DNA from: Zymobacter palmae
GTDB taxonomy: Bacteria > Pseudomonadota > Gammaproteobacteria > Pseudomonadales > Halomonadaceae
Direction: 5' to 3'
Assembly: GCF_003610015.1 (NCBI RefSeq)
Contig: NZ_AP018933.1
Coordinates: 1,860,001-1,924,000, forward strand
DNA: 64,000 nt
A program made the translations under genes and the position numbers. How positions within the stretch are numbered: position 1 is the first letter of the stretch; every line of letters starts with the position of its first letter. The notes under the pieces were generated by a model, which saw nothing but the letters and a program-made list of their open reading frames with translations, did not search any database and had not been told where the DNA came from. Positions 2,501 to 55,122 of the stretch are shown in pieces.

Positions 2501-2515
2501 ATGCCTGGAATTCCT

Positions 2516-3409
2516 ATGCTCAAAAATCGCAAGATCGTCACCCGCATTAGTTTATCTGCTGAGAGTGGTGAGTTTGATGGCGGCAATGGGCGCGATGTAA
2601 TACTAGAGGATTACCGCGCAACGGCTGAAATAACAGATATCTCATGGTACTCCGGCGGCGAGTTATCCATGCGCATATATGGCGTCCCTCCAGAGGTTAT
2701 GAATAAGCTATCGACGCTTGGCATTACTCAAAGCCTTGTTCCCAAGAACACTATATCTGTGCTGGCAGGAGAAGTAGACGACAAGGGCCAAGGAAGCCTA
2801 AGCGAGGTATATGCAGGCACCATTAAAAGCGCGCACGCCGACTACTCTGCGCAGCCCAATGTCTCGCTTGCGCTAGAAGCAACAGCGGGCTTTTTCGAGG
2901 GCCAGAAACGTGTGCCGCCCACAACGTACCGCGGCGACATGAAGGTAGCTGACAGCATCAAGGTGCTCACAGAAGAAATGGGCTGGACATTCGTGAATGA
3001 CGGCGTTGATACCGTGTTGCGCGATGTTCATGTGGAAGGATCAGCAGTTGGGCAAATACATGATCTAGCCCGCGCCGCTGGCATAGCCTGCATTATGAGC
3101 ATGAACACCGTCACTATCTCACCTTACAACGGCATCACTACAGCCACCCCCGTTGAGATATCGCCAGAGACAGGGTTGATTGGCTACCCCGCGTTTGCCT
3201 CTGGCGGCATTGCGGCCAACACCCTCTTCAACCCGGCTATCAGGGCTGGCGGCAAAATCAAACTAACGACCTCTGTGCCGCAGGCTAAAGGCGAGTTTAA
3301 TGTGCAGTTTGTTCAACACCAAATCTCGTGCGAAATGCCAGACGGCCCCTGGATGACGAACGTTTACGCCAACCATAACGACTACTACATGGCAGGCAGG
3401 TATGACTAA
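2516..3409 (+). CDS. Phage baseplate hub protein
   Basis: The product of about 297 residues has the beta-rich make-up of the baseplate hub (gp44/gpD-like) of short contractile tails, with the KSAHADYSAQPNVSLALEA segment and the C-terminal EMPDGPWMT strand typical of this group. The ATG at 2516 is chosen because GGA sits six bases upstream; the ATG at 2501 directly abuts a terminator T-run and has no ribosome site. It overlaps the spike gene by 8 bases, so the two are translationally coupled. The N-terminal region (to about 2850) has somewhat lower GC than the later tail genes. Confidence 0.65.
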   Translation: MLKNRKIVTRISLSAESGEFDGGNGRDVILEDYRATAEITDISWYSGGELSMRIYGVPPEVMNKLSTLGITQSLVPKNTISVLAGEVDDKGQGSLSEVYAGTIKSAHADYSAQPNVSLALEATAGFFEGQKRVPPTTYRGDMKVADSIKVLTEEMGWTFVNDGVDTVLRDVHVEGSAVGQIHDLARAAGIACIMSMNTVTISPYNGITTATPVEISPETGLIGYPAFASGGIAANTLFNPAIRAGGKIKLTTSVPQAKGEFNVQFVQHQISCEMPDGPWMTNVYANHNDYYMAGRYD

Positions 3410-4130
3410 TACAGCTCCCTATGGGCGCCCTGAAGCGGCACGCATATCCCAGAAAGCAGACTTCGACTTCATCATTAACCGCATCATCGGCAAGCACCGC
3501 ACCGTGACGCTGGTGCAGGTGGTTGCGGTGAAAGATGAGAGCGGTAGCGGCGAGCCGGACACTGGCTGCGTCGACATCAAGCCATTGGTGATGGCGAAAG
3601 ACGCACAGGGGACGCTCTACTCCCACGGCACGATTTATAACGTGCCTTTCTTCCGTCTGCAGGGCGGCAGTAACGCCATCGTCATTGATCCCCATGTGGG
3701 CGATATCGGCATCGCTGTGATCGCCGACCGCGACATTAGCAACGTGAAGAGCACCAAGGCTGAAGCGCCCCCGGGATCGGATCGCCGTTACTCGCTCGAC
3801 CAAGCGCTCTATATCGGCGGGCTGCTCAACGGCGAGCCGCAGCAGTACATCAAGTTCACGTCGAAGGGCATCGAGATCACCTCGCCCACAGCCGTCACAA
3901 TCAACGCCCCTACCCTGACGTTCAACGGCAACGAGATGATCGTTAATGCGAAGCAGTCTGTCGCCGTTCAGACCCAGACGGTCAATTTGACCGCCACGCA
4001 GACATTCAACGTCGTTAGCCCGCAGTCGGCCTATACCGGCAAGGTCATCATCAACGGCATCGACTTCGATACTCACAAGCATCAGGACGTACAGCCAGGC
4101 AAAGGGCTGACCGGCCTACCCTCGGCATAA
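3402..4130 (+). CDS. Gp138-family membrane-puncturing spike
   Basis: This 242-residue protein has a Gp138-type N-terminal OB-fold region (about residues 15-130, with VVAVKDESGSGEPDTGCVDIKP and DPHVGDIGIAVIADRDIS in separate stretches) and then a repetitive beta-helix tail (SPTAVTINAPTLTFNG, VAVQTQTVNLTATQTF). Such spikes trimerise at the tip of the contractile tail and pierce the outer membrane. The position after the hub and before wedge proteins fits. The C-terminal HKHQDVQPG segment resembles a metal-binding tip. Confidence 0.8.
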   Translation: MTNTAPYGRPEAARISQKADFDFIINRIIGKHRTVTLVQVVAVKDESGSGEPDTGCVDIKPLVMAKDAQGTLYSHGTIYNVPFFRLQGGSNAIVIDPHVGDIGIAVIADRDISNVKSTKAEAPPGSDRRYSLDQALYIGGLLNGEPQQYIKFTSKGIEITSPTAVTINAPTLTFNGNEMIVNAKQSVAVQTQTVNLTATQTFNVVSPQSAYTGKVIINGIDFDTHKHQDVQPGKGLTGLPSA

Positions 4131-4140
4131 GGACAGCATC

Positions 4141-4434
4141 ATGGCAGTGAACAACAAGTGCGTGGCGTTCGATAACCCTGATACGCAGATGCGCGAGGTC
4201 TATATGGGCGGCCGCCTCATCATGAACGCGTACAAGGATGAGATCCCCCTGCTCGGTGGCGTCTACGGCCGCCAAGTGTCGTGGTACCTGTACACGCAGG
4301 GGCCGTGGCGCGACAACATCTTCTGGCCGCCGAAAGAGCGCTTCCGAGATGCCCTGCCGCCTGAGTATCAGAAACAAGCGATACCGAGCAGCGAGGTCGA
4401 CATCCCCGCAGACTCCCCGCCTATGCACGCATGA
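4141..4434 (+). CDS. Hypothetical phage baseplate-region protein
   Basis: This 97-residue protein lies between the spike and the wedge protein, 10 bases after the spike stop. It has several aromatic residues (YLYTQGPWRDNIFWPP) and a Pro-rich C-terminus. No family was recognised. Codon use matches the structural genes on both sides, so it is probably a true late gene rather than cargo. Confidence 0.6.
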   Translation: MAVNNKCVAFDNPDTQMREVYMGGRLIMNAYKDEIPLLGGVYGRQVSWYLYTQGPWRDNIFWPPKERFRDALPPEYQKQAIPSSEVDIPADSPPMHA

Positions 4435-4509
4435 CCACCGCCGACCTTGAGTCGGTTTTTTTACGCCTATAGCCCGCCCTGTGCGGGCATTTTTGTATCG
4501 GAGTGAGAC

Positions 4510-4863
4510 ATGGCGAAGACGCTACTACTCGACCAAAAGGCGTGGGACTTGGTGCTGGACGCTTCCGGCAATATCGCCGTGGCAGACGCCCCCTATGCCA
4601 CAGCACAGGACGTGGCTTGCGCCCAGCGCACGCTCAAGAACGACTGCTGGTACGACACCGAGCGAGGCATTCCCTACCGCGAGATGGTGCTGGGTGAACT
4701 GCCGCCGAAGGCATTGTTCCAGCACTGGCTCGAAGAAGAGGCCAAGCGCGTGCCGCTGGTCGACACGGCTACAGCGGTCATCACCTCTTTTGCTGACGGC
4801 AGAGTCGGCGGCTTCACAGAGTGCACGCTGACCACAGGCCAAACCGTCACCACGACCGTCTAA
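4510..4863 (+). CDS. Phage baseplate wedge protein (gp46/W-like)
   Basis: This 117-residue protein has the layout of small wedge proteins that precede baseplate J: an N-terminal LDQKAWDLVLDASGNIAVA beta segment, then AQDVACAQRTLKNDCWYDTE and the GIPYREMVLG motif typical of the gp46/DUF2634-like group. A GGAG ribosome site lies upstream of the ATG. It is followed after 9 bases by baseplate J, its expected structural partner in the wedge. Confidence 0.7.
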   Translation: MAKTLLLDQKAWDLVLDASGNIAVADAPYATAQDVACAQRTLKNDCWYDTERGIPYREMVLGELPPKALFQHWLEEEAKRVPLVDTATAVITSFADGRVGGFTECTLTTGQTVTTTV

Positions 4864-4872
4864 GGAATTGAA

Positions 4873-6087
4873 ATGTCAACAACCAACGTACCAGCGGTCA
4901 CCTTCTCGACTGCTGGCGTATCAGTACCCAGCGAAACAGACATTCTGAATGGGCTGCTATCGGACATTGATTCGGCGTTCGGCGGCGGTACCAATAAAGA
5001 CCTGACGACACCGCAGGGACAGCTGGCACAGAGCTTGGCCGCCATCATCGGTCACGTGAACAACAATGCCGCGTGGATGGCCAACAACCTTGACCCCGAC
5101 GTGGCTAGTGGTCGAATGCAGGACGCGATCGGCCGCATCTACTACCTCGATCGTAACCCGGGATCAGGCACTGTGGTCACTGCTACCTGCCGCGGACGCG
5201 TCAACACCGTGATTCCGGCAGGCAGCCTCGCGCAGGATGCCAACGGCTATATCTACGCGAGTACCCATGCGAGCACCATCCCGCGCAGCGGCCAAGTAGA
5301 CATCCAGTTCCAATGCCAGACCATCGGCCCTGTCGCATGCCCAGCCGGTAACCTGAGCCGTATTTACCGAAACATAGACGGCTGGGAGTCGATCACTAAC
5401 GCCGCAGCAGGCACAGAAGGCGCTTACACCGAATCCCGATCGGCTTTCGAGCTACGGCGTAAAGAGAGCGTGGCGATCAATAGTCGCTCGACTACCCATG
5501 CGATACGCGCACGCCTGCTCTCGACTACGGGCGTTGTCGATGCCTACGTCTGGGACAACACAGACAACAAGACCGCAGAGCACGGCGAAACGAAGTACCC
5601 CGTCCCGTCCGGCAGCCAGTACATCTGCGTCGCTGGTGGTAACGCGGCAGACATTGCGGCGGCGATCTTTAAGTCCCGCAATACTGGCACCCCTATGGTT
5701 GGCGACACCGAGTACACAGTCGAAGATGACCAGTACCTCGACCCACGCCCGAAGTACACGATGCGCTGGGTGACGGCTAAGGCCGCGCCGGTCTACTTCA
5801 AAGTGACGATCGCAAAGAACAACCGCATCCCCGGCAACTTCGAAGAGCTGATCCGCGAGAAGATTGTCGACGCATTCTACGGAACGGATGGCACCTCCCG
5901 CGCTCGTATCGGCAGCCGCATTCTGCCCGGCAAATTCTATGGCCCCGTCAGCGACATCGATACAAGCATCGAAGTGCAGTCGATTACGATCGGCTTTGAC
6001 CACAACGCTGATAAGACGTCGATCACTGCCGGTGCTGACCAGCGCCCCACCATCGAAACCGCGAATATCACCGTGGAGGCCGTATGA
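4873..6087 (+). CDS. Baseplate J/gp47 family protein
   Basis: The 404-residue product shows the baseplate J pattern: an N-terminal segment with PSETDILNGLLSDID, the TPQGQLAQSLAAIIG helix, a central beta region with VIPAGSLAQDANG, and a C-terminal LPGKFYGPVSDIDTSIEV strand. J proteins form the wedge arms that hold the tail fibres and change shape on contraction. It overlaps the DUF2612 gene by 4 bases (ATGA). Length is close to the usual 350-450 residues. Confidence 0.85.
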   Translation: MSTTNVPAVTFSTAGVSVPSETDILNGLLSDIDSAFGGGTNKDLTTPQGQLAQSLAAIIGHVNNNAAWMANNLDPDVASGRMQDAIGRIYYLDRNPGSGTVVTATCRGRVNTVIPAGSLAQDANGYIYASTHASTIPRSGQVDIQFQCQTIGPVACPAGNLSRIYRNIDGWESITNAAAGTEGAYTESRSAFELRRKESVAINSRSTTHAIRARLLSTTGVVDAYVWDNTDNKTAEHGETKYPVPSGSQYICVAGGNAADIAAAIFKSRNTGTPMVGDTEYTVEDDQYLDPRPKYTMRWVTAKAAPVYFKVTIAKNNRIPGNFEELIREKIVDAFYGTDGTSRARIGSRILPGKFYGPVSDIDTSIEVQSITIGFDHNADKTSITAGADQRPTIETANITVEAV

Positions 6088-6689
6088 CAGAGCCTCTCGT
6101 AGCCGATTTCGACTGGCGCAAAACGCTGATGACGCAGTACGCCAATAGCCCGACGATCTGCGAACTGATTGAGCGTTTTCACGGCGCAACGGTGCTAGCC
6201 ACACAGCGGGCCGCCGAGCAGTTCTACAGCATGATCTGGAATATCGACACCGCTGCCGGTTACGGGCTGGACGTGTGGGGCAAGATCATCGGCGTATCGC
6301 GCCAACTGCAGGTGTCCGGCAACGTCGCCTATCTGGGCTTCAAAGAGCAGTACGCAGAGTCAACGCAGAAGATCGGGCCGCAGCCCTTCAACGTTGCCCC
6401 CATGCGCCCATCAACCACCGATAACGGCGTCTACAAACTCGACGATGATGCCTACCGCCTGCTGATCCTCAGCAAAGCCATGAGCAACATCACCGACTGC
6501 TCAATACCCAGTGTCAACCGCCTGCTTTCTTACCTGTTCCGCGATCGTGGCCGCGCCTACGTCGTCGACTACTTCGACCGATCAATTGGCCTGCACTTCG
6601 ACTTCCAGCTTACCGCGATCGACTTGGCCATCCTTTCCAATACCGACGTCATGCCCCGCCCGGCAGGCGTCAGCATGTCCCTGGAGTAA
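6084..6689 (+). CDS. DUF2612 phage baseplate/tail-tip protein
   Basis: The 201-residue protein has the DUF2612 hallmarks: an N-terminal helix region with an ANSPTICELIE segment, WNIDTAAGYGLDVWGKIIGVSR, and the DDDAYRLLILSKAMSNITDC segment. This family occupies the gpI-like place after J and probably links the wedge to the tail fibre. It is 4 bases overlapped with J and 3 bases from the fibre gene, consistent with one late operon. Confidence 0.8.
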   Translation: MTEPLVADFDWRKTLMTQYANSPTICELIERFHGATVLATQRAAEQFYSMIWNIDTAAGYGLDVWGKIIGVSRQLQVSGNVAYLGFKEQYAESTQKIGPQPFNVAPMRPSTTDNGVYKLDDDAYRLLILSKAMSNITDCSIPSVNRLLSYLFRDRGRAYVVDYFDRSIGLHFDFQLTAIDLAILSNTDVMPRPAGVSMSLE

Positions 6690-6692
6690 CTC

Positions 6693-8462
6693 ATGAAGAT
6701 CACCGACGCTCCTGCGCTGATCACTACGCCTTTCGCACAGAACGGCACCCGCAACGATATCCCTGCCACAGGTGACGGCCTCGGCACAGGCCGTGCATCG
6801 CTCGCCACAGGCTTCCCTGATGAAACCATGAAGCCGATCACGGCTGGCGGTGTGCCGCCGTTCGGTGCGGACTTCAACGGCATCCTGTATGTGCTGAGCA
6901 ACGCCGCACGCTTCTACGGTGCAGGCGGCCACTACAAATTCAATACTGACTTTGCATCGAAGATCGGCGGTTACCCGATGGGCGCCACGGTTCAGGCAAG
7001 TGACAACATGGGCCACTGGCTCAATGTGGTTGAGTCGAACAGCACTGATCCGGAAAGCGGCCCCTCCACGGGCTGGCTGCCGCTGGCGGACCATAACGGC
7101 ACCGCCACCGTCACGCTGACAGGCAACACCACCCTCACCCCATTACAGGCAGCCAAGGCCAACCTGCGCTTTACTGGAACGCCCACAGGCAACGTTACCG
7201 TCACATTCCCCGCGTGGACCAAGCGCTACTCAATCATCAATGACTGCACTGGCGATCAGTCAATCATCTGCACCACGGGTAACGGTGAATCGATCAGCAT
7301 CAAGAACGGCGCAAAGTACGAAATCGGCTGCGACGGTAAGAACCTGACCGTAGCAACGGTCAATGCGTCACAAGTGTTCGCAGAGCCGAATAAGAACGTC
7401 AGCTCGCTAGACGCGCCAACCGTACAGCAGATCATCAATACGCTCGGCAGCGCAGCGGCACATGCGGCTAGCGACTTTGATGCATCCGGGTCTGCTGATA
7501 CAGTTCAAAAGAACTTAGATAATTATAATAACGCGGCATGGGATGGTATTAATTCAGCATGGAATAAAGGCAATGACGCTCAAAATAGATGCGGCTTTCT
7601 GGAGTACCTTTTATCCGGAACAAAAGATCGTTCCTTTGTTTATTTGGGAGACCCGACAGAACAAGGTTCTTTATTTAAGCAAGGGAGCGGATGGTTTTCT
7701 TGCGTCTATAATCACAAAGTCACAATGGAGGTTACCCCAGAAGGTAAAATCAATTATTCAACAATAGGCTGGGATCAAGTAACTGATAAGAAAATTGTTT
7801 CATCCGGTGATGAAACCGGCTTGGTTAAAATGAATGGTCAGGCCGATATATCAGGAGTCTCTGCGAAAGATTACGCCGCTTCTCAATATCAAGCACGACA
7901 AGCTTGGGATAAATCTGTTGAATCAAGTGTAGCGGCAGCAGCGGCGCAAAAAACAGCTGATGACGGATGGAATAAAGCTGAAGATGCTCAGAAAAAAGCA
8001 AATAAAACAGCGTATACATTCCAGGGAACAGATGATCGAAATTACTGGTACATAGGTGACTGGGGCGGTGTTAACAGCTGCTTAAAAGGCGAAGACGGCT
8101 GGCTGACATTCCAATATCATGGGAAAAACATTTTTCAAGTCAATTCAGATGGCTTAATTGTTGGCGGGCAGATTGATGTTTCAAAAGTAATTAATGATTA
8201 CGAATATGGTGACGGATTTCATAAAAATCTTAAAACTGGCCTGATAACGCAGTGGGGTTATGCATCTTCAAGTAAATATCGAGATGTGTGGGTAACATTC
8301 CCGCGTGCATTTTCAACTACAAACTATATAGTTATCAGTCTTGATGTTGGTGCGGGTGGTGGTAGTCATTATGCTACAAGCAAGAGCAATACATCGTGCA
8401 ATATTGGCAAAAATGGTGGCAATTCGGACATATCTTGCCAGTTTATTGCTATCGGGTATTAA
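6693..8462 (+). CDS. Phage tail fibre protein (mosaic)
   Basis: The 589-residue protein starts with the conserved fibre attachment region (about residues 1-130, including ITAGGVPPFGADFNGILY and a GYPMGATVQ segment), followed by beta-rich linker. From about residue 265 onward the DNA becomes AT-rich and the protein has two related modules, residues about 280-365 and 425-500, each with W-[ND]K-xx-DAQ, a DRxxxYxGD strand and a GW[FL] strand. The C-terminus (TGLITQWGY, a gp53-like receptor-binding domain) should contact the host. The base-composition break near 7490 marks exchange of the host-range part. Confidence 0.85.
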   Translation: MKITDAPALITTPFAQNGTRNDIPATGDGLGTGRASLATGFPDETMKPITAGGVPPFGADFNGILYVLSNAARFYGAGGHYKFNTDFASKIGGYPMGATVQASDNMGHWLNVVESNSTDPESGPSTGWLPLADHNGTATVTLTGNTTLTPLQAAKANLRFTGTPTGNVTVTFPAWTKRYSIINDCTGDQSIICTTGNGESISIKNGAKYEIGCDGKNLTVATVNASQVFAEPNKNVSSLDAPTVQQIINTLGSAAAHAASDFDASGSADTVQKNLDNYNNAAWDGINSAWNKGNDAQNRCGFLEYLLSGTKDRSFVYLGDPTEQGSLFKQGSGWFSCVYNHKVTMEVTPEGKINYSTIGWDQVTDKKIVSSGDETGLVKMNGQADISGVSAKDYAASQYQARQAWDKSVESSVAAAAAQKTADDGWNKAEDAQKKANKTAYTFQGTDDRNYWYIGDWGGVNSCLKGEDGWLTFQYHGKNIFQVNSDGLIVGGQIDVSKVINDYEYGDGFHKNLKTGLITQWGYASSSKYRDVWVTFPRAFSTTNYIVISLDVGAGGGSHYATSKSNTSCNIGKNGGNSDISCQFIAIGY

Positions 8463-8471
8463 GGCGGTTAT

Positions 8472-8924
8472 ATGAAAAAGTATGTAATAGAAAAAGACAC
8501 GCTGTGCTGTTATACGACAAGTGATATAAATGAAATGCTCTTCTTGCGGGAAGATGTGCGAGCACTTCCAGAAGCGTTGCCGGACGGCTTCTGCTATATA
8601 GATGAACCAGAGTTTATTCTGGTTAATAACGTTAAAAATGGGCTTGCTGATATCAGCGGGTGGGATAATGACAAGCCTCTAATAAAAATGAAAACTGAAA
8701 AAGAATTGCTCAGCCGACAAATTTACTTCGAAAATAGCGGGAGGCAAGCAGCACTGATAGCAGAAGCGGATTCGTTCATCCAGCCCATGCTTGGCTACGC
8801 AGTCTCCGGCATCCTGTCAGATACGGAGAAAGAGACCTTCAAAGCGTGGAACGAGTACCGAAAGGCGCTCGAGGACGTGGACGTGGCAGCCACCAACATT
8901 GAGTGGCCTGCCAAGCCTGAATGA
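8472..8924 (+). CDS. Tail fibre assembly chaperone
   Basis: The 150-residue protein lies directly after the fibre gene. Its second half (ADSFIQPMLGYAVSGILSD, then FKAWNEYRKALEDVD and IEWPAKPE) is the usual C-terminus of tail fibre assembly proteins, which help the fibre fold or trimerise. The first half is AT-rich and unlike common family members, while the last 60 codons return to prophage-like composition. That is the expected pattern when fibre tip and chaperone N-terminus are exchanged together. Confidence 0.75.
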   Translation: MKKYVIEKDTLCCYTTSDINEMLFLREDVRALPEALPDGFCYIDEPEFILVNNVKNGLADISGWDNDKPLIKMKTEKELLSRQIYFENSGRQAALIAEADSFIQPMLGYAVSGILSDTEKETFKAWNEYRKALEDVDVAATNIEWPAKPE

Positions 8925-8926
8925 CC

Positions 8927-8950
8927 GCCCCACTCTGCCGGGGCTTTTTT
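8927..8950 (+). terminator. Terminator of the prophage late operon
   Basis: Arms GCCCC and GGGGC enclose an eight-base loop and are followed by six T residues. It ends the structural operon three bases after the chaperone stop codon. Confidence 0.8.
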
Positions 8951-8988
8951 GTGCCCGCCAAACCAAGGCGGGCAGCGTAATTAACCAT

Positions 8989-9276
8989 TCAAAGAGACCG
9001 TGGGTCGCCTCCCTGTAACAGGCAAATTCTTTTTTCCCCGCTCTCTTTTAGCCAAACGTTATTTCCTTCACGGATTCTTCCAATATAAAACACAGGATCA
9101 GACCCCATATATAATATGCAATCGTCAATGATTTCGGGAGAAACATCACTCATTCTTCTTTTTATGTAAGATATTGATACGTTTTTATTGCCTTCTGCAT
9201 CCTTGCTTTCTACGACTGAGTTAATAACTAACAATATTTTGTCCACTACATCATCAGGAGCATTTAACATAGTCAT
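8989..9276 (-). CDS. Hypothetical protein, 95 residues
   Basis: No family was recognised. The protein is acidic, with an N-terminal helix (DDVVDKILLVINSVVES) and a predicted small helix-strand C-terminal half containing SYIKRRMSDVSPEIIDD, which could be a winged-helix-like segment. A good ribosome site (AAGAGG) precedes the ATG, so it is likely expressed. It is on the opposite strand to the tail genes and 14 bases downstream of the integrase remnant. Its low GC fits the accessory region. Confidence 0.5.
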   Translation of the reverse strand: MTMLNAPDDVVDKILLVINSVVESKDAEGNKNVSISYIKRRMSDVSPEIIDDCILYMGSDPVFYIGRIREGNNVWLKESGEKRICLLQGGDPRSL

Positions 9277-9290
9277 ATAATACCTCTTGC

Positions 9291-9539
9291 TTAATAAATT
9301 TTTGAGTTATCAAGATAATCCGCATACCACTGCATCATTGCCGTGCGCTGATCTACGTATGCAGCCTTGTTGTAGACGCCAGCAGTGCCGGGCTCAACGT
9401 GAGCCAGCTGCGCCTCCACATAGTCACGATTCCAACCATGCTCTCGTAACAGGGTAGACACTGTATAGTACCAGCCATAGCTTCTGTTTTTCCTACAGCG
9501 CATTGACCTGCATCTATTACGGTGCCACATTGATATCAC
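9291..9539 (-). pseudogene. C-terminal remnant of a P4-type tyrosine integrase
   Basis: The last 55 residues (STLLREHGWNRDYVEAQLAH, then a short loop and YNKAAY, then QWYADYLD) align with the end of P4-type phage integrases. The usual HGFRA motif is degraded to YGWYY, so the catalytic His and Arg of the H-x-x-R box are gone, though the LAH box and the YNKA tyrosine region remain. No upstream coding sequence for the catalytic core or arm-binding domain is found, so the gene is both truncated and mutated. It reads away from the tRNA-Gly at 13284-13359, the orientation expected for an int gene once next to that attachment site. Confidence 0.75.
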
Positions 9540-9573
9540 AAACAGTCGCTTCTATCCTTAGCAACCATACTCC

Positions 9574-9590
9574 TGTACACCCACGTGTAC
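9574..9590. promoter_or_regulatory. GTGTAC inverted repeat, possible integrase arm site (copy A)
   Basis: TGTACACCCACGTGTAC is an inverted repeat of GTACAC around CCAC. A near copy lies inverted at 13151-13169 beside the tRNA-Gly. Such repeats occur near integrase genes as protein-binding arms; that function is inference. Confidence 0.4.
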
Positions 9591-9668
9591 CCTAGGGCAC
9601 AAAATAAAACCTAACCAATTGTTTTTATTAAAAATTACCATCCCCACGCTCGGCACCAATACGAAGAA

Positions 9669-9704
9669 AGCCCCGTAACTTTAAAGTTTACGGGGCTTTT
9701 TTTA
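9669..9704. terminator. Bidirectional terminator
   Basis: Arms AGCCCCGTAAACT-like and AGTTTACGGGGCT form a long stem followed by a seven-T run on the + strand, with an A-rich 5' flank giving possible activity on the other strand. Confidence 0.8.
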
Positions 9705-9917
9705 TTTGATCCTGTAGCAAAACATCGCTTCAATACTCTTATGCTTTTTCATCTTCATTTTTTTATGACATTTCTGCAGGAAACCATATTAGATTAGCAT
9801 GTTATTTTTGTTTTTATTAAAATACTGCACGAAAGTACAGTTCCTGTTGGATGACAACTTGTTATTAACAAAGTATTATTAAAAAGCAATTTTACTAGAA
9901 AAATAGAGGGATTCAGT

Positions 9918-10373
9918 ATGTCACGTTTAGAATTCGATGGGATGCAAAAAACTATTACTCTTTACAATGCGAAAGAAGAGGCTGTAGGGAAGTGGGAAGC
10001 TCAAAATATTATTGATTCTAGTGTAAAAGACATGCGTCACCTGCCTGACAAAACATATATGATTCAAGATACGCATGCTCCACACTTGCATTTTGATCAT
10101 CCGGAAAAAGACACTTTCAATGGTGAATATGGGGTTTACGGAATCGTAAGGTTTTATACTCCCAAAACAAAAAATACTAAAAAGCATGAAGGAATTGGCG
10201 TTCATGCTGGTAGAGAACATTATTATCGTAAGCCTGGGCCTCAGCACCCAACTTTTGGGTGCATTAGAACAGTTGAAGTAGCCATGAAAGCAATAAAAGA
10301 ATTAATGCAGGAAGATACATTGCAAACAATAACTGTTATAAACAACAATGCTGCCAAGAAGAGCAAGAAATGA
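9918..10373 (+). CDS. L,D-transpeptidase-like (Tlde1/YkuD-type) antibacterial effector, copy 1
   Basis: The 151-residue protein has the order of small L,D-transpeptidase effectors: MSRLEFDGMQ and ITLYNAKEEAVGKWEA (the xLxLY..xGxxxGxW strand pair), DMRHLPDKTYMIQD (IPxGxY-like), YGIVRFY, then VHAG with catalytic His96 and TFGCIRT with Cys115 and Arg117. His-x18-Cys matches the YkuD active-site spacing. There is no signal peptide, so it must be delivered by another machine; the fold would cut or alter peptidoglycan peptides in a target periplasm. It overlaps the next gene by 4 bases, and that gene encodes an exported protein, as for an effector/immunity pair. A paralogue lies at 54221. Confidence 0.75.
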   Translation: MSRLEFDGMQKTITLYNAKEEAVGKWEAQNIIDSSVKDMRHLPDKTYMIQDTHAPHLHFDHPEKDTFNGEYGVYGIVRFYTPKTKNTKKHEGIGVHAGREHYYRKPGPQHPTFGCIRTVEVAMKAIKELMQEDTLQTITVINNNAAKKSKK

Positions 10374-10807
10374 AAAAAATAATTTTATTATTTATATCAA
10401 TATTTTTTATATCCACTACTTTACATGCAAAAGAGTGTACACAATCTATTTTAGATGAAGCTGATAAAAACGCAGGAGATTTTAAAAGTTGGGAAAATGT
10501 GTATGAATACAGTAAAAAATATGGCGAATGTATAGGTTCAGATACACAAGAAAGTGTATCTGAGGGCGTGGTGCGTATATTGGCAGACAACTGGGAGCAA
10601 CTGCATACATTAAAAATGTTGATTAACAAAGATAAAAAATTTGAAAGATTCATTATAGACAATATAAGTAGCACAGTACTTGAAGATGATTTGTTAAAAA
10701 TATATGATTTAGCAAAAAAACAGTGTCCGTCTGATTCATCAAGGTTGTGTAAAAGAATTAGCAATAAGGCAATAAAAGCATATAAAGAAATCAACGGTAT
10801 TAATTAA
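10370..10807 (+). CDS. Periplasmic immunity protein for effector copy 1
   Basis: The 145-residue product has a Sec signal peptide (MKKIILLFISIFF, cleavage near LHA/KE about residue 20). The mature part is helical, with a Trp/Tyr-rich motif (SWENVYEYSKKYGEC), a DNWEQLHTL helix, DKKFERFIIDNI, and paired Cys residues (KQCPS and RLCKR) likely to form disulfides. The same pattern is found in the partner of the second effector at 54664. Family type (small exported protein directly after a cytoplasmic peptidoglycan-active toxin) supports an immunity role. The start ATG overlaps the effector stop (ATGA), so translation is coupled. Very low GC suggests transfer. Confidence 0.7.
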   Translation: MKKIILLFISIFFISTTLHAKECTQSILDEADKNAGDFKSWENVYEYSKKYGECIGSDTQESVSEGVVRILADNWEQLHTLKMLINKDKKFERFIIDNISSTVLEDDLLKIYDLAKKQCPSDSSRLCKRISNKAIKAYKEINGIN

Positions 10808-10825
10808 AAGTTATCTCAATCCTAA

Positions 10826-10852
10826 GCCCAGCTATCAAGCTGGGTCTTTTAT
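10826..10852 (+). terminator. Terminator of effector/immunity operon 1
   Basis: GCCCAGC and GCTGGGT arms around TATCAA, followed by a T-rich stretch, lie 18 bases after the immunity gene. Confidence 0.8.
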
Positions 10853-10925
10853 TTATAAAAACGTTAGATAAAAAGAAAGAACGACATAAAAACACATAAA
10901 AATAACATAGGAATATTTTTATTAT

Positions 10926-12034
10926 TGGCGGTTGCCAGTTCTGAGTGCAACACCCCGTTATTTAGTGGGTGGCCGCCTTTTTATTTTCCGTTGCCAGCAT
11001 CACCTTTGTTAATCGCTCTATCGGGCACTTAAACCCAAAACGCTTACGCGGACGCATGTTCAGCGACAACGCGATCTCATCCAGCTCCGCTTGGCTATAC
11101 ACCGATAGATCGGTCCCTTTCGGTAGATACTGGCGGATCAAGCCATTGATGTTCTCGTTAGCACCGCGCTGCCAGGGGCTGTGGGGATCACAGAAGTAGA
11201 TGCCAACGCCTGTATTCTGGGTAATTTCAGCGTGGCGGGCCATTTCTTTACCCTGGTCATACGTCATCGTCTTGCGCAGTGAGAGTGGCATTCGATTCAG
11301 TGCAGCACATCCCTCTACGGCGGCCGTGGCCGTCGCGCCGTTCATTTTGACCAGCATCACATAGCCACTGGTCAACTCCACCAGCGTACCTACCGCTGAG
11401 GCGTTATTTTTACCTTTGATCAGATCGCCCTCCCAATGCCCCGGGATAACGCGTTTATGGACCTCGGGGGGACGCAAATGAATGCTGACTCGCTCAGGAA
11501 TCTGGCCGCGCCGATCAACACCACCTGTACGAGGTTTCCGCTGGCTGCGACCGTGACGAAGGCAGTGAATCAGCTCATGACGCAACTGTCCGACAGGCAA
11601 CGCATAAATGGCGGTGTAGATCGTTTCTTTGCACACATAAGCGTCGCGTAGTGAGGGAATATCCATCGTCTTTAACTGGCCTGCAATCTGCTCAGGAGAA
11701 AGGTACTTCTTGAGCATGTGGGTGATCAGTTCGAAGCGCTCTTTACCGGGCAATAGCTTACGCTTGGGACGGCATAATAAGCGGCGGTAGTGTCGATTAT
11801 CCTGCGCTTTATTCGCTTGATAGTGCTGGCGAGTACGCGCATGGCGACGCACTTCACTGCTAATGGTGGAGGGTGCACGCTTGAGAAGCTTTGCGATGGC
11901 TCGAAAACTCATCTGTTGAGCAAGAGCGACCTGTAACGTGGACCGTTCCGTCATGGTAAGTTCACAATAGGACATGGACAACACCTTATCGTATTAATGC
12001 GTTAAGGTGTTGCAATCAGAATTGGCGACGGCCA
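10926..12034. mobile_element. IS30-family insertion sequence, apparently complete
   Basis: About 1.1 kb bounded by imperfect inverted repeats of roughly 29 bp: the left end begins TGGCGGTTGCCAGTTCTGAG and the right end, read inwards, TGGCCGTCGCCAATTCTGAT; both continue to GCAACACC. One intact transposase gene fills the interior. The short target duplication expected for this family is not obvious, so the exact ends may be off by a few bases. It separates effector pair 1 from the broken luxR. Confidence 0.75.
10962..11984 (-). CDS. IS30-family transposase
   Basis: The 340-residue protein carries an N-terminal helix-turn-helix (LAQQMSFRAIAKLLKRAPST) and the IS30 DDE core: GHWEGDLIKG (first Asp), MTYDQGKEM (second Asp) and ANENINGLIRQYLPKG (Glu). 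All three catalytic residues and the full length are present, so it may still be active. The stop lies about 30 bases inside the left inverted repeat. Confidence 0.95.
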   Translation of the reverse strand: MLSMSYCELTMTERSTLQVALAQQMSFRAIAKLLKRAPSTISSEVRRHARTRQHYQANKAQDNRHYRRLLCRPKRKLLPGKERFELITHMLKKYLSPEQIAGQLKTMDIPSLRDAYVCKETIYTAIYALPVGQLRHELIHCLRHGRSQRKPRTGGVDRRGQIPERVSIHLRPPEVHKRVIPGHWEGDLIKGKNNASAVGTLVELTSGYVMLVKMNGATATAAVEGCAALNRMPLSLRKTMTYDQGKEMARHAEITQNTGVGIYFCDPHSPWQRGANENINGLIRQYLPKGTDLSVYSQAELDEIALSLNMRPRKRFGFKCPIERLTKVMLATENKKAATH

Positions 12035-12362
12035 TTGAAAAAACTCGTTTACTGACAATATATCCCCATTCTCTTCTATTCCACTAGCTAGCAATCTGCA
12101 TACTCAAGTCGACAATAATTATCTGATGTATCCATAGCCTTTTGAGAATCCCCTCCTCAATATAACTTTTAATAGATATGTAAATTAATATGCGCATGCC
12201 CCCTTTCACCCCAAGCCAGGCAGTCTTTATTATAAGCCCCTTTAAATAACATTCAGCATAAATCAAGATATATTGTGCTAACTGGCTCTTGGTCCAGTAG
12301 CTAGACCTGTTCATATTTATTTATGGTAATTACTATCCTGAACATTTAATGGACAAGATAAA
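12035..12362. other. AT-rich stretch with no recognised gene
   Basis: Neither strand shows a credible coding region. It probably contained the promoter of the broken luxR that follows. No clear repeat or terminator was seen. Confidence 0.5.
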
Positions 12363-13056
12363 ATGAACAGCTCATGACAAATAGATTTATTTAACAGACT
12401 TAATGATTCAACAAATATGCAGGATGTTCTAGATTCTGCTTTGAAAACAACGAGAAATTTTGGTTTTGAATTCTGTAGATGGCGATCAAAGCTGCCAACG
12501 CCGTTTTTCCGTGATGAATAGCAATGAAGACAGACTGACTCAGGAAAGAGAGAGTGGCCACTATGATGACGCTCCTGCTGTAAAACACTGCGCCACCTCT
12601 AATGATCCCTTTTTCTGGAAGGGAACAACAGAAGACGAGGCGTTTCTGAAAGCCCCTGCATTATTTGAGGAATATTACTCTACAGGACACTTTGCCGGGT
12701 GGGCACAGTCGGTTGTCGAAAATCGCAATATGTTCAGCATGTTCTACGTCGACAGTAAATCTAGAATGACCACAGATGACATTCAACATGTTGACTTGAA
12801 ACTGCAGTGGGTAGCCACCGCTGTTTTATGCAAAATGCATCAAATTCGGCTACAGCCTGACATACAGCTTTACGAACGTGAAAAGGAAGTATTGCGATGG
12901 TCCGGCGATGGAAAGACGGCCTCAGAAATCAGCCAAATACTCAAGTTGAGTAGAAGCACCATAAATTTTCATATGCGCAGCGCAATGTTCAAACTCAGTG
13001 CGCCAAACAAAACCGCAGCGGTTATCAACGCGATCTATCTTGGTCTTTTGAATTGA
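12363..13056 (+). pseudogene. Broken LuxR-family regulator (paralogue of the 49-52 kb cluster)
   Basis: Reading from ATG 12363 gives MNSS, a TGA at 12375 where relatives have Trp, then QIDLFNRL..NMQDVLDSA and FEFCRWRSKL up to a TAG at 12519. Relatives continue through this point, and the continuation here is in another frame (SNEDRLTQERESGHYDDAP onward from about 12520). So there is one nonsense change and one frameshift. The C-terminal helix-turn-helix (EKEVLRWSGDGKTASEIS, then STINFHMRSAM) is intact. An internal ATG at 12460 or 12511 could still give a truncated protein of up to 198 residues, lacking the first third of the ligand domain. Confidence 0.8.
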
Positions 13057-13150
13057 TAAAAGTACGGTGAGACCCACCGGTTAATGGGTATTGTCTTATC
13101 TGAGATGCTGAGACCGTTTCGTGTATACCTGCCCCTGGCTAAGCACCTCA

Positions 13151-13169
13151 GTGTACAGATGGGTGTACA
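13151..13169. promoter_or_regulatory. GTGTAC repeat near tRNA-Gly, possible integrase arm site (copy B)
   Basis: GTGTACAGATGGGTGTACA on this strand is a near inverted copy of the site at 9574. It lies about 115 bases from the 3' end of tRNA-Gly, where the attachment arm of a tRNA-targeting integrase would be. Confidence 0.4.
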
Positions 13170-13283
13170 CGCATATTGCCATGAGTGGGCATAGAATATG
13201 CGACATATGGGGGCAAGGATACCGAAGAAACCCTTATACAGAGTGCTCACGGCGATACTAGGAAAGCGTTGGGAAGTAAACAT

Positions 13284-13359
<76 letters not shown>

Positions 13360-13505
13360 TTAAAAGGAAGGAGCACTGATAACAGTGCGAAACAGAGATT
13401 ACCAGCAAACCTTTACCAGCGCAAACGGTAGGCGGGCCTCTTTCCCAAAGGGATAGCCCTCCTACCGCGTACTATCGAGTGTCACTCAGATCATGGTGTA
13501 CTACA

Positions 13506-49337: not shown

Positions 49338-50045
49338 TCAATGCAGCAGGCCCAAGAATACCGCGCGCACAACAGCCGCCGTCTTATTCGGCGCATCCAG
49401 CTTCATCATGGCATTGCGCAGGTGGAAATTGACCGTGCTGACGCTGATGTTCAGTATCTGAGAGGTCTGATCCGATGTTTTGCCATCGCCTGCCCAGCGC
49501 AGCACTTCCTTCTCACGAATGGAGAGGCTGACAGGACTGTGCTGACGCATTCGTGACATAGCACTATGAACAGCCGTGGTGATCCACTCAAGGTGAAAGT
49601 TCACTTCATTTTCAAGATAAGACTGCGAAATGACCTGGTCGCTGTCCACATAGAACATGCTGAACTGACCGCCCCCTTCCATGACCGACTGCGCCCAACC
49701 TCCGCGGTGTCCCCAGCCAAAGAATTCTTCGAACAGCTCGGGGTCCTGATCGAACAACCCACCTTCATGCTGACCAGTCCAGATAGCAGGTGCAGTCGTT
49801 CGTGAACAGTGACGAGGAATTGGCGCATCATCATAGCCACCGGAGGCGTTCTTTTGATGCACCGCATCCTCAGATGAACCCAGTATACAGGCCTTCCTAT
49901 TGGCTAACGGAAGCGCGAGCTGTGTCCGCCATGTGCAGAAATTAAATCCCAAAGGCTTGACCGCTTCCAAGCTCACATCAACGATGTCCTGCATGTTCGT
50001 TTTTTCATGAAGCGACGTAAACAAGTCTATCTGCCAATTATTCAT
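49338..50045 (-). CDS. LuxR-family regulator (orphan), copy A
   Basis: The 235-residue protein has an N-terminal autoinducer-binding-like domain (MNNWQIDLFTSLHEKTNMQD, FNFCTWRTQL, GGYDDAPIPRHC, AIWTG, GGWAQSVMEGGGQFSMF) and a C-terminal GerE-type helix-turn-helix (LSIREKEVLRWAGDGKTSDQ, TVNFHLRNAMMKLDAPNKTA). The start follows AAGGAG by six bases; it begins 11 bases after the upstream luxR stop, so the two share a transcript. No luxI homologue is in the window, so it is a LuxR solo. Ligand is unknown. Confidence 0.85.
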   Translation of the reverse strand: MNNWQIDLFTSLHEKTNMQDIVDVSLEAVKPLGFNFCTWRTQLALPLANRKACILGSSEDAVHQKNASGGYDDAPIPRHCSRTTAPAIWTGQHEGGLFDQDPELFEEFFGWGHRGGWAQSVMEGGGQFSMFYVDSDQVISQSYLENEVNFHLEWITTAVHSAMSRMRQHSPVSLSIREKEVLRWAGDGKTSDQTSQILNISVSTVNFHLRNAMMKLDAPNKTAAVVRAVFLGLLH

Positions 50046-50056
50046 GGCCAACTCCT

Positions 50057-50779
50057 TCAATCAATCAGTCCAAGAAAAAGGGCATGAACAACTAATGCGT
50101 GCACGCTGTCGCAGCCAAATTTCTTACGCAAATCATCTAGCATCGAAAAAAGCTTTATTGCATTAATACTGCTATCTGCCATCACGTTCTTTATAGACGC
50201 ATTATGCCAATACAGCTTTCTTAGAAGCGCAATCTCATCAGGAGAAATATAGTGATCCAATGAAGACTTCTTTAGTTCATCCATGCGGATATAGGCTGCC
50301 GCACTCACCCATTGCATGTGCTGTTCGGCATGCCACATTTCATCTGGAGAAAGAATGCTTCGGCTTTCCACAAAGAATATGCCTTTCTGACCATCATGGG
50401 CCGAGGTAGAAATGGCCCAACCGCTGTGATGGCCTGTGCCGTAATACTCTTCCAGTACCTCTGGAGCCTGAAAGAATAGGTCTTCGTCCGTTGTTCCCCG
50501 CCATGAAATGGGGGCTTGAGAAATCGCGCAGTGCCGAGGCACAGGAGCGTAGTCACAATCGCCATTAGCGATCTTTTCCAATGCCTTATCTTCGATAGCA
50601 TTGAACGCCACAACACCATTGCTGTTGTTGTTTTTTGCGGGCTGCGTGTTAGTACGCCATCCGCAGAAATCGAACCCAAAAGGCCGGACAGCATCCAGAG
50701 AAACATCCATAACCGTTTTTACGGAATGAGCTGAATCCAGCGCTGAAAATAGATCCAGTTTCCAGTTATTGGTGTTCAT
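50057..50779 (-). CDS. LuxR-like protein with diverged DNA-binding domain
   Basis: The 240-residue protein keeps the ligand-domain pattern (WKLDLFSALDSAHSVKTVMD, FDFCGWRTNTQ, CDYAPVPRHC, ISWRGTTDE, HSGWAISTS). Its C-terminus departs from GerE: the LREKEVLRW stretch reads SPDEIALLRKLYWHNASIKN and the recognition helix is replaced by SINAIKLFSMLDDLRKKFG. Only the end (ALVVHALFLGLID) again resembles the relatives. It may not bind DNA the usual way and could act by pairing with the other copies. First gene of a two-gene operon with copy A. AT-richer than the others. Confidence 0.75.
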   Translation of the reverse strand: MNTNNWKLDLFSALDSAHSVKTVMDVSLDAVRPFGFDFCGWRTNTQPAKNNNSNGVVAFNAIEDKALEKIANGDCDYAPVPRHCAISQAPISWRGTTDEDLFFQAPEVLEEYYGTGHHSGWAISTSAHDGQKGIFFVESRSILSPDEMWHAEQHMQWVSAAAYIRMDELKKSSLDHYISPDEIALLRKLYWHNASIKNVMADSSINAIKLFSMLDDLRKKFGCDSVHALVVHALFLGLID

Positions 50780-51137
50780 TTCTTTAGGATATCCTCTTGA
50801 TTAACGCCCACTCTAAAAAACTGCCGAAACCATAACTACTGTCCTTTATGACAGGTATATATAAAACAAACGGTATACAAGCATTATCGTACTATGCATC
50901 TTCCATTTAGAGCACGCCTCATCCCCCCAATACCTATGTCATTGAGGAGCCTTAACATCATAAAATTGCAATAGAAACCGTCTATTTTAGAAAGGGGAAA
51001 AGCAATCATTCAAGTTATGAAACAACTAGTTAAGATGCCATTCGAATAATATCATTACATAAAAAATAATGGTTATTCATCGAAGCCCGGTGCACAAAGT
51101 GTGCGCACCGGGCTTATTCCACAGCATTCATGCCTTA
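50780..51137. other. AT-rich control region between LuxR genes
   Basis: No gene. It should hold the promoter of the two-gene luxR operon and includes the terminator of the next luxR (51083-51115). Confidence 0.5.
51083..51115 (-). terminator. Terminator of the third luxR gene
   Basis: AAGCCCGGTGC and GCACCGGGCTT arms enclose an 11-base loop, 22 bases after the stop of the gene at 51138. Confidence 0.8.
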
Positions 51138-54220: not shown

Positions 54221-54667
54221 ATGTCACGTTTAGAATTTGATGGCATGCAACACACTATTACACTATACAATGCGAAAGAAGAAAATGTTGGGAGCTGGGA
54301 AGCATACAATCACATTGATTCACGAATGAAGATGCGACATATTCCTGATCGAACATACATTATGCAAGATAAATCCTCTACGCATATGCATCCGAATCAC
54401 CCTGATTGGGACACTTCTGATGGCAAGTTTGGCCCATACGGTATCGTTAGATTCTATGTGCCAGGGCATGACGGTGTTGGTGTGCATTCAGGGCGAAAAC
54501 ATGCTCCATATCAACCTGGGGCTATCCATGCGACAGAAGGATGTATCAGAACAATAGATGAAGCGATGCAAACTATTCATGATTTAATACAACAGGATGA
54601 ACTAACAACAATAACCATCCTTAATAACTTGCCAAAAAATATTCATTCAAATAAAGGTGCAAAATGA
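54221..54667 (+). CDS. L,D-transpeptidase-like (Tlde1/YkuD-type) antibacterial effector, copy 2
   Basis: The 148-residue protein is a paralogue of the one at 9918. The first 22 residues are nearly identical (MSRLEFDGMQ, ITLYNAKEE); the rest diverges but keeps RHIPDRTYIMQD, YGIVRFYV, VHSG with His89 and TEGCIRT with Cys108 and Arg110, the same His-x18-Cys spacing. No signal peptide is present. A strong GGGGGA site precedes the ATG. It overlaps the exported partner gene by 4 bases. Peptidoglycan-peptide attack in rival cells is inferred from the fold and pairing. Confidence 0.75.
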   Translation: MSRLEFDGMQHTITLYNAKEENVGSWEAYNHIDSRMKMRHIPDRTYIMQDKSSTHMHPNHPDWDTSDGKFGPYGIVRFYVPGHDGVGVHSGRKHAPYQPGAIHATEGCIRTIDEAMQTIHDLIQQDELTTITILNNLPKNIHSNKGAK

Positions 54668-55122
54668 AAAGTATATTCAAAGCAAGTGCAATAATTCTGC
54701 TGTCAATAATATCAGTTGACGCCACCTCAAAAATTCCGTGTAATAATGTCACTGAAAGTGAATATGCTGACAAAATGTTAGATGAATTAAATGGCTGGAA
54801 TAGTATTTACAATTATTATTACAAATACAGCAAATATGGCTGCTATTCAACAGGTTATTTTGGAGAAAGTATAGCTGATTCTATTGCAAAAATATTAGCA
54901 AACAAATGGGATACATTGGATGAATTAGCCTTAAAATCTAACAACAATAAAAAATTTGAAAAATTTGTTTTAAGCAAAATAGATTCCACCGTTGACGGAA
55001 ATGATCTGATTAAAATACATGAACTAGCAAATAAAAATTGCCCAAAGGGCTTGTCAAAAACTTGTAGAAACATTGATAAAGAAGTAACAAGATCATTCAA
55101 AGAAATGGGTGGGAAATTCTAG
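54664..55122 (+). CDS. Periplasmic immunity protein for effector copy 2
   Basis: The 152-residue protein has a Sec signal (residues about 1-22) and a mature part with the same skeleton as the protein at 10370: GWNSIYNYYYKYSKYGCY, ANKWDTLDELALKS, NKKFEKFVLSKIDST, and Cys pairs in NCPKG and TCRNI. Overall similarity between the two is much lower than between their effectors' N-termini, as expected if immunity follows toxin specificity. Coupled by ATGA overlap. Confidence 0.7.
   Translation: MKSIFKASAIILLSIISVDATSKIPCNNVTESEYADKMLDELNGWNSIYNYYYKYSKYGCYSTGYFGESIADSIAKILANKWDTLDELALKSNNNKKFEKFVLSKIDSTVDGNDLIKIHELANKNCPKGLSKTCRNIDKEVTRSFKEMGGKF

What the first reader, a model, noticed from the sequence alone, without database searches (positions are those of the whole stretch)
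9918..10807. Orphan L,D-transpeptidase-like effector with a coupled periplasmic immunity gene (pair 1)
Seen: a signal-less 151-residue protein with His96-x18-Cys115 and Thr-x-Gly-Cys-Ile-Arg, overlapping by 4 bases a gene for an exported, Cys-paired 145-residue protein. Known: YkuD-fold enzymes use this His/Cys site, and Tlde1-type effectors of type VI systems have this size and a periplasmic partner. Inference: an antibacterial toxin/immunity pair carried as an orphan cassette far from any secretion genes, between an integrase remnant and an IS.
Basis: partly seen in the sequence, partly recalled or inferred. Interest (0 to 1): 0.78.

Follow-up and report, generated by a model that had tools for sequence, protein, structure and literature searches.

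The report
Cell-wall toxin and antidote gene pair
Two overlapping genes most likely encode a small enzyme that a bacterium injects into rival bacteria to damage their cell wall, and the antidote that protects the bacterium itself; it looks like a movable weapon cassette of a known general type.

Summary
In detail: gene sizes, 4-base overlap, His96/Cys115, integrase remnant and IS all check. The 50 entries listed for the predicted fold of the 151-aa protein are all of the L,D-transpeptidase/carboxypeptidase group, and 11 of 11 aligned members (itself included) match Pfam YkuD at E <= 1. Of 17 loci with this domain, 6 have hcp, the type VI secretion (T6SS) tube gene, directly upstream; in 3 it ends an Rhs-type protein; in 15 the next gene is one family of exported-looking four-Cys protein. 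The host has a T6SS cluster about 0.56 Mb away and two paralogous pairs (54221-55122 here; one in a prophage). Best reading: a T6SS wall-damaging effector with periplasmic immunity, carried as a mobile cassette. It does not match the Tlde1 profile, and its partner does not match Imm57. L,D-peptidase toxins with Rhs (2012) and after hcp (2020), and prophage-borne T6SS cargo (2020, 2024), are in print, so it is a new member of a known kind. Toxicity, secretion and binding are untested.

The parts
9918..10373 (+). Effector, 151 aa, no signal peptide (by eye), YkuD-type L,D-transpeptidase domain, His96/Cys115
   Evidence: ORF; Pfam YkuD weak (16.2 bits, below the 23.4 cut-off), 11 of 11 members of A5 at E <= 1; model and fold searches
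10370..10807 (+). Immunity protein candidate, 145 aa, exported-looking, predicted all-helical, four Cys
   Evidence: ORF; family alignment; model from 4 sequences, pLDDT 84.5, pTM 0.77
9905..9912 (+). Purine-rich ribosome-binding site in front of the effector (AGAGGGAT); similar runs in front of the two paralogous pairs
   Evidence: upstream sequences printed; read by eye
9670..9696 (+). GC-rich stem followed by a T run, likely terminator upstream of the cassette
   Evidence: read by eye; the scanner did not list it
10826..10845 (+). Terminator-like stem-loop directly after the immunity gene
   Evidence: 8 pairs, 5 of them G-C, then a T-rich tail; 2 sites found in the region, shuffles 0.7 on average
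9291..9539 (-). C-terminal remnant of an integrase
   Evidence: NCBIfam PRK09692 E 9.9e-11 (fragment); PHROG integrase 2e-7
10931..12029 (-). IS30-type insertion sequence directly downstream
   Evidence: Pfam HTH_38 and rve; inverted repeats
2501..8924 (+). Right end of a prophage remnant (baseplate hub, baseplate J, tail fibre, tail fibre assembly) directly upstream
54221..54667 (+). Second effector (pair 2), 148 aa, 60% identical to the first
54664..55122 (+). Second immunity candidate (pair 2), 152 aa, 36% identical to the first

Best explanation
The pair is an antibacterial effector-immunity module of the type VI secretion system. The effector is made without a signal peptide, is carried on or in the Hcp tube (inferred from the hcp-effector-immunity operons of relatives), and is fired into a neighbour's periplasm. 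There the His96/Cys115 site of its YkuD-type domain attacks the bond before D-Ala4 of peptidoglycan stem peptides, as an L,D-carboxypeptidase and/or by L,D-transpeptidation/exchange, and weakens the wall. The partner is exported to the producer's own periplasm, folds as a helical protein probably held by two disulfides, and binds and blocks the effector from sister cells. The two genes look like a small transcription unit of their own and move as a cassette on prophages and other mobile DNA. Shown here: predicted fold, active-site conservation, pairing, hcp and Rhs linkage in relatives, a host T6SS gene cluster. Inferred: export of the partner, secretion, substrate, toxicity, binding.
For: Fold: AlphaFold model from 9 sequences (pLDDT 68.1, pTM 0.71); VIA-align: 50 of 50 listed entries of the L,D-transpeptidase/carboxypeptidase group, best Csd6 Z 11.3, YkuD Z 9.7; Foldseek: Bd1075 1e-4, Tlde1a 4e-3. 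Profile: 11 of 11 members of A5, window protein included, match YkuD at E <= 1, best 3.9e-7. Active site invariant in 13 of 13 rows. Linkage: hcp directly upstream in 6 of 17 loci, stop/start TGATG in L053; Rhs-type fusion in 3 of 17. Pairing: same partner family in 15 of 17; the Rhs-linked partner of G294 matches the family profile (hhalign 97.3%, E 2.4e-11), that of L053 the window's partner (BLASTP 1e-27). Host T6SS: profile matches for tssC, hcp, tssA, F, G, J, L, M, gp25-like tssE, a ClpB-like AAA ATPase, TagF, PAAR, three vgrG. Partner dN above effector dN in 8 of 8 comparisons, which share sequences.
Against: The window protein alone is below Pfam's YkuD cut-off. No hcp or vgrG lies near any of the three pairs of this genome (positions) and no Rhs gene was recognised by eye, so delivery by the host T6SS rests on relatives. 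The effector model is of middling confidence, with the loop at 100-108 under pLDDT 50 and Foldseek query TM-scores of only 0.42-0.56 in the 50 rows listed. The partner matches no known immunity family. Two Rhs-type loci carry different exported-looking partners (G381, Persicobacter). No experiment.
Confidence: 0.82

Rival explanations
1. Phage-particle or tailocin cargo: the effector is delivered by a phage tail or tail-like particle rather than by T6SS, with the partner protecting the producer.
For: Pair 1 lies just after tail fibre genes; the third pair lies before a holin gene in a prophage; T6SS and phage tails are related machines (recalled).
Against: Relatives are joined to hcp or Rhs. 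L045-L047 lie beside a CI-type repressor, not tail genes (Pfam on L046). The pair has its own terminator-like site and is not fused to a tail gene. Pair 2 has no recognised phage gene nearby (by eye).
Confidence: 0.07
2. Prophage lysis or cell-wall entry enzyme: a phage wall enzyme with an exported accessory protein, not a weapon against neighbours.
For: Wall-active fold; the third pair lies just before a holin gene.
Against: 13 effector members scanned against PHROGs at E <= 0.1 gave one weak hit (0.072) to a family without a description and no endolysin; no match in 50,697 phage records at E <= 0.01. Chromosomal, hcp-linked and Rhs-linked relatives do not fit lysis.
Confidence: 0.05
3. Intracellular toxin-antitoxin or superinfection-exclusion pair kept by prophages, acting inside the producing cell.
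For: Two-gene overlapping operon; position beside the CI-type repressor in L045-L047, a classic place for lysogenic-conversion genes (recalled).
Against: A YkuD-type enzyme needs peptidoglycan, while the effector has no export signal and the partner seems to have one, so they would not meet inside the cell; no PADLOC match at E <= 1.
Confidence: 0.04

Closest known systems
Tlde1/Tldi1 T6SS L,D-transpeptidase effector and immunity (Salmonella SPI-6; PMC9638812, passages seen)
   Same: Small L,D-transpeptidase-fold T6SS effector with catalytic Cys and His, encoded as a pair with its immunity. Tlde1a structures are found by the model at E 4e-3.
   Different: 0 of 11 members of A5 and nothing in this genome matches PF10908 at E <= 1. 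The His before Gly-Cys of the published (S/T)HGC motif is Phe here; it varies among relatives and is His only in this genome's third pair. Encoded away from the T6SS cluster.
Tox-LD-peptidase of polymorphic toxins (Zhang et al. 2012, PMC3482391, passages and table rows seen)
   Same: L,D-peptidase domain as a toxin with RHS repeats and linked immunity; listed routes include T6SS and TcdB/TcaC. Our relatives G381, G294 and the Persicobacter plasmid have an Rhs-type architecture. Their note on Imm57 ('mostly alpha; D, SE, C') resembles the partner.
   Different: The partner does not match PF15596 (Imm57). Here the domain is free-standing.
hcp - L,D-transpeptidase-domain gene - t0734 homologue (PMC7400221, section 2.4 read)
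   Same: Predicted T6SS effector directly downstream of hcp with an immunity gene after it, as in our L013, L015-L018 and L053.
   Different: Whether t0734 is homologous to this partner was not tested; that report concerns orphan immunity genes.
Prophage-borne T6SS cargo: Ralstonia aux clusters on P2-like and other prophages (PMC11481896, passages seen) and V. cholerae Aux3 (PMC7721734, passages seen)
   Same: T6SS effector and immunity genes carried by prophages or prophage-like elements; the Ralstonia authors suggest that such prophages may be mutualists that raise the host's competitiveness.
   Different: Other toxins in the passages seen (lipases and others; TseH); the held Ralstonia text has no 'transpeptidase'.

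Membership tests
YkuD / L,D-transpeptidase catalytic domain | YkuD fold | tested here: met
   VIA-align: 50 of 50 listed entries of that group, YkuD itself Z 9.7, rmsd 3.0, 107 aligned; on a model of pLDDT 68.1
YkuD / L,D-transpeptidase catalytic domain | Pfam PF03734 match above the curated cut-off | tested here: inconclusive
   Window protein 16.2 bits against 23.4; relative L009 24.8 bits, above it; 11 of 11 members match at E <= 1
YkuD / L,D-transpeptidase catalytic domain | Catalytic His and Cys with Gly-Cys-Ile-Arg | tested here: met
   Invariant in 13 of 13 rows and in the Persicobacter domain
Tlde1 (PF10908) | Match to the Tlde1_dom profile | tested here: not met
   0 of 11 members at E <= 1; no match in the own genome at E <= 1 (where the control genomes rang only below the cut-off)
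Tlde1 (PF10908) | (S/T)-His-Gly-Cys motif as printed in PMC9638812 | tested here: not met
   T-F-G-C here; the residue before Gly varies in 13 rows and is His only in the third pair of this genome
Tlde1 (PF10908) | Periplasmic toxicity by L,D-carboxypeptidase and exchange activity | not testable with these tools
   needs bench work
T6SS effector | Genetic linkage to hcp, vgrG, PAAR or Rhs | tested here: met
   Met in relatives: hcp 6 of 17, Rhs-type fusion 3 of 17; not met at the three loci of this genome
T6SS effector | A T6SS in the same genome | tested here: met
   TssB and TssK not checked by profile
T6SS effector | T6SS-dependent secretion | not testable with these tools
   needs bench work
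Tox-LD-peptidase with Imm57 | Partner matches Imm57 (PF15596) | tested here: not met
   0 of 10 partner members; no match at the partner genes of the own genome. A class search rang nowhere, controls included, so distant kinship is open

The most novel reading that the evidence does not exclude
Temperate phages carry this pair, in P2-like phages together with an hcp gene, to load the host's own T6SS with a phage-supplied wall toxin, so that lysogens kill non-lysogen neighbours and are immune themselves: the prophage uses the bacterial weapon to favour cells that carry it. A related idea is in print for other toxins in Ralstonia, which raises the odds a little and lowers the surprise.
Probability: 0.35. 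Interest if true: 0.6.

Novelty: new member of a known kind. Interest (0 to 1): 0.43.

Why it matters
It adds a candidate T6SS cell-wall effector clade outside the Tlde1 profile, with its own four-Cys immunity candidate family, and shows one toxin domain in three settings (free-standing, hcp-linked, Rhs-fused). The prophage-borne copies make it testable whether phages arm their hosts' T6SS.

Tried and rejected
Sequence search against solved structures: none for either single protein; the profile of A8 gave only a weak colicin B hit at E 0.14, the profile of A9 two chance-level hits. Partner fold: VIA-align listed generic helical repeats, best Z 6.9 against a BAF complex subunit, not taken as kinship. 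Phage records: no match for either gene. The first genome-contig scan found nothing. The Imm57 class search rang nowhere, controls included, so it shows nothing. The comparison of A9 with A7 was of overlapping sets and says nothing. NF041602 four-Cys family: 14.2 bits against a cut-off of 65, not taken. NCBIfam: 0 of 13 effector members at E <= 0.1. Rfam on 8400-13500: only a tRNA. E. coli genomes: for DNA of L016 the 10 rows listed of 2394 cover only phage D and ogrK genes; the effector DNA of L053 had no match. Plasmids: for the L053 trio the 10 rows listed of 53 cover only hcp.

Literature. Searches were looked at as listings; nine papers were opened for passages (one section of PMC7400221 in full), none read whole. 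In those searches I saw no report of a prophage-borne hcp-L,D-transpeptidase-immunity cassette, but most listed papers were not opened. Prophage-borne T6SS cargo with other toxins is in print (PMC11481896; PMC7721734). PMC8861277, PMC12994826 and PMC11148199 gave nothing on such a cassette in the passages seen.

Full report
What is there. A 151-aa ORF (9918-10373, +) overlaps by ATGA a 145-aa ORF (10370-10807, +). His96 and Cys115 lie where stated; Cys115 is the only Cys of the protein. There is a stem with a T run upstream at 9670-9696 (by eye; not listed by the scanner) and a terminator-like site downstream at 10826-10845, so the pair looks like a transcription unit of its own. Promoter-like sites were no more frequent than in shuffles (5 against a mean of 6.3), so no promoter is claimed. 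The pair lies between the tail end of a prophage remnant plus an integrase remnant and an IS30-type element. Its GC (38% effector, 29% partner) is below most of the window (mostly 50-60%), as expected of acquired DNA.

Fold and active site. The window protein alone gives a weak YkuD hit (16.2 bits, E 0.016, under the cut-off of 23.4). Its relatives strengthen it: 11 of 11 members of alignment A5, window protein included, match YkuD at E <= 1, best 3.9e-7, and 0 of 11 match Tlde1_dom. The AlphaFold model (nine sequences, pLDDT 68.1, pTM 0.71) is mostly strand. VIA-align, which re-aligns what Foldseek ranks highest and is not a search, lists 50 entries, all of the L,D-transpeptidase/L,D-carboxypeptidase group: Csd6 Z 11.3 (rmsd 3.3, 121 aligned), Bd1075 Z 10.7, a mycobacterial L,D-transpeptidase 10.6, YkuD 9.7 (that Csd6, Bd1075 and Pgp2 are carboxypeptidases and DpaA a YkuD-fold enzyme is recalled). 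The first three differ by less than 1 Z, so the order does not choose between carboxypeptidase and transpeptidase. Foldseek agrees (Bd1075 1e-4; query TM-scores 0.42-0.56 in the 50 rows listed) and includes Tlde1a at E 4e-3. H96, G98, T112, G114, C115, I116, R117 and T118 are invariant in 13 of 13 rows of A8. A8 leaves out the Persicobacter domain (in A3, where these positions are also kept), the L053 protein (found later; 45% identical) and the duplicates L006, L017 and L045.

The partner. It begins with a signal-peptide-like stretch (by eye) and is predicted all-helical from four sequences (pLDDT 84.5, pTM 0.77). Four Cys in similar order and spacing occur in 10 of 10 partners listed, and three of these columns are invariant in 12 of 12 rows of A9. 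No Pfam family matched the window's partner. Imm57 (PF15596) was matched by 0 of 10 members, although the published note on Imm57 ('mostly alpha; D, SE, C') resembles it.

Relatives. I count 17 loci with the effector domain: three in this genome; nine further IMG/VR contigs L013-L018 and L045-L047 (L006 is a copy of this genome's own prophage, same sequence by eye); Frateuria L005; G807 L053; G381 L009 and G294 L010; and a Persicobacter plasmid L004. L016/L017 and L045/L046 are near-duplicates, so independent events are fewer. A partner of the same family follows in 15 of 17. For G294 this was confirmed by profile comparison (E 2.4e-11) and BLASTP (2e-11), for L053 by BLASTP (1e-27); L017 and L045 rest on near-identity to L016 and L046. 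G381 and Persicobacter are followed by other exported-looking proteins. In Frateuria the effector departs from the family after the active-site stretch. A scan with the partner family returned seven contigs, six already known and L035, where the partner starts at the contig end; no solo partner was seen, but the scan missed L018 and L045-L047, so it is not exhaustive.

Linkage to secretion. An hcp gene stands directly upstream in 6 of 17 loci: L013, L015, L016, L018 and L053 by Pfam (E 4.5e-32 to 1.2e-35) and L017 by near-identity to L016. In L053 hcp stop and effector start share TGATG. In 3 of 17 the domain ends an Rhs-type protein: G381 (TEN_YD-shell and YkuD in one ORF), G294 (Rhs-like end read by eye; no Pfam match for the short piece) and Persicobacter (ORF of 2205 aa, RHS_repeat E 7.6e-6). 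The other 8 of 17 (this genome's three, L014, L005, L045-L047) have neither, read from ORF lists. This genome has a T6SS cluster near 2.41-2.43 Mb with PAAR, ImpA_N (TssA), IcmF (TssM), DotU (TssL), SciN (TssJ), a ClpB-like AAA ATPase where TssH is expected, TssG, TssF, gp25 (TssE) and TagF and TssC. It also has four full-length hcp and one fragment and three vgrG. TssB and TssK were not checked by profile.

Mobility. The third pair of this genome lies in a prophage (its region is IMG/VR contig L006) just before a holin gene (PF05106, E 6.7e-20). L045-L047 lie just before a divergent CI-type repressor (S24 peptidase plus HTH, shown by Pfam on L046). L015-L017 are P2-like: D on L015 and Ogr on L016 by Pfam, and L016 matches 62 phage records, Peduovirus and its kin among them, over 13% of the stretch in the rows listed. 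L013, L014 and L018 are short metagenome contigs and were not examined for phage genes. All nine come from a viral collection, so their prophage position is partly selected for. The genome hits are the fairer sample: of this genome's three pairs one is in a prophage, one at the edge of a prophage remnant, one not; Frateuria and L053 show no clear prophage by eye. The family is rare: 1 of 97 relatives (single protein, E <= 0.001), 3 of 369 in the class (A3, E <= 1e-8) and 2 of 398 in the phylum (A8, E <= 1e-8) had a match, the own genome counted each time; the samples overlap.

Selection. Effector dN is below partner dN in 8 of 8 comparisons, which share sequences. dS is saturated in most. In the two closest pairs dN/dS is 0.019/0.082 and 0.014/0.077 for the effector, and 0.033/0.035 and 0.018/0.081 for the partner. 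A conserved effector with a faster partner fits an effector-immunity pair but does not prove one.

How it works and what is known. The best reading is a T6SS effector that cuts or exchanges at D-Ala4 of peptidoglycan stems in the neighbour's periplasm, with a periplasmic immunity protein. Zhang et al. 2012 predicted L,D-peptidase toxin domains with RHS, T6SS and linked immunity (PMC3482391, passages and table rows seen). PMC7400221 (section 2.4 read; passages) reported an L,D-transpeptidase-domain gene directly downstream of hcp followed by a t0734 homologue and called it a likely effector. Tlde1a is the characterised example (PMC9638812, passages). T6SS cargo on prophages is in print for Ralstonia, P2-like phages included (PMC11481896, passages), and for the V. 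cholerae Aux3 prophage-like element (PMC7721734, passages); orphan effectors beside DNA mobility genes are noted in V. parahaemolyticus (PMC9765294, passages). So both the kind of effector and the kind of carriage are known; this clade, its partner family and the combination are what is added. Membership in Tlde1 fails by profile and motif; working like Tlde1 remains likely.

Limits. No toxicity, secretion or binding is shown. Signal peptides were judged by eye. The effector model is of middling confidence.

Noticed in passing
window 49560-51791 (-) and 12460-13056 (+); G000:C1 genome-wide: The 3.03 Mb genome has 21 Autoind_bind (LuxR-type) hits, two with a stop inside. 4 of 7 T6SS cargo loci on C1 (pairs 1 and 2, one hcp, one hcp fragment) lie within 3 kb of one, where 2.7% of the chromosome does (binomial tail 1.8e-5). 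The third pair and two hcp genes do not; the hcp on contig C2 was left out. Loci were chosen after the fact and the hits are clustered. Quorum control of cargo islands is a possibility.
   Followed up: partly
L027 5429-6473 and L028 3782-4952: Other hcp loci of this genome carry further candidate wall effectors: a weakly pesticin-like protein (22.7 bits, cut-off 25.8) with an exported-looking partner next to hcp, and a GH19 chitinase-like protein (33.8 bits, cut-off 25.5) with an exported-looking neighbour on the 5,060-bp contig that begins with hcp.
   Followed up: partly
G000:C1 about 1855120-1855430, before the window: In the prophage remnant upstream of pair 1 a replication-type gene runs straight into what looks by eye like a tail gene; no head genes were recognised between them, so head genes may be lost.
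   Followed up: no
L005 6001-6878: The Frateuria effector departs from the family after the GCIRTTDEA stretch while the partner frame is intact: a broken effector kept with its immunity, or a sequencing error.
   Followed up: no
window 54221-55122: Pair 2, a 60%/36% identical paralogue of the pair, not next to any phage gene recognised by eye; a transposase-like fragment lies at 56335-56613 (by eye).
   Followed up: yes
window 10931-12029: A complete-looking IS30-type element lies directly downstream of pair 1, between it and the LuxR-type gene at 12460.
   Followed up: partly
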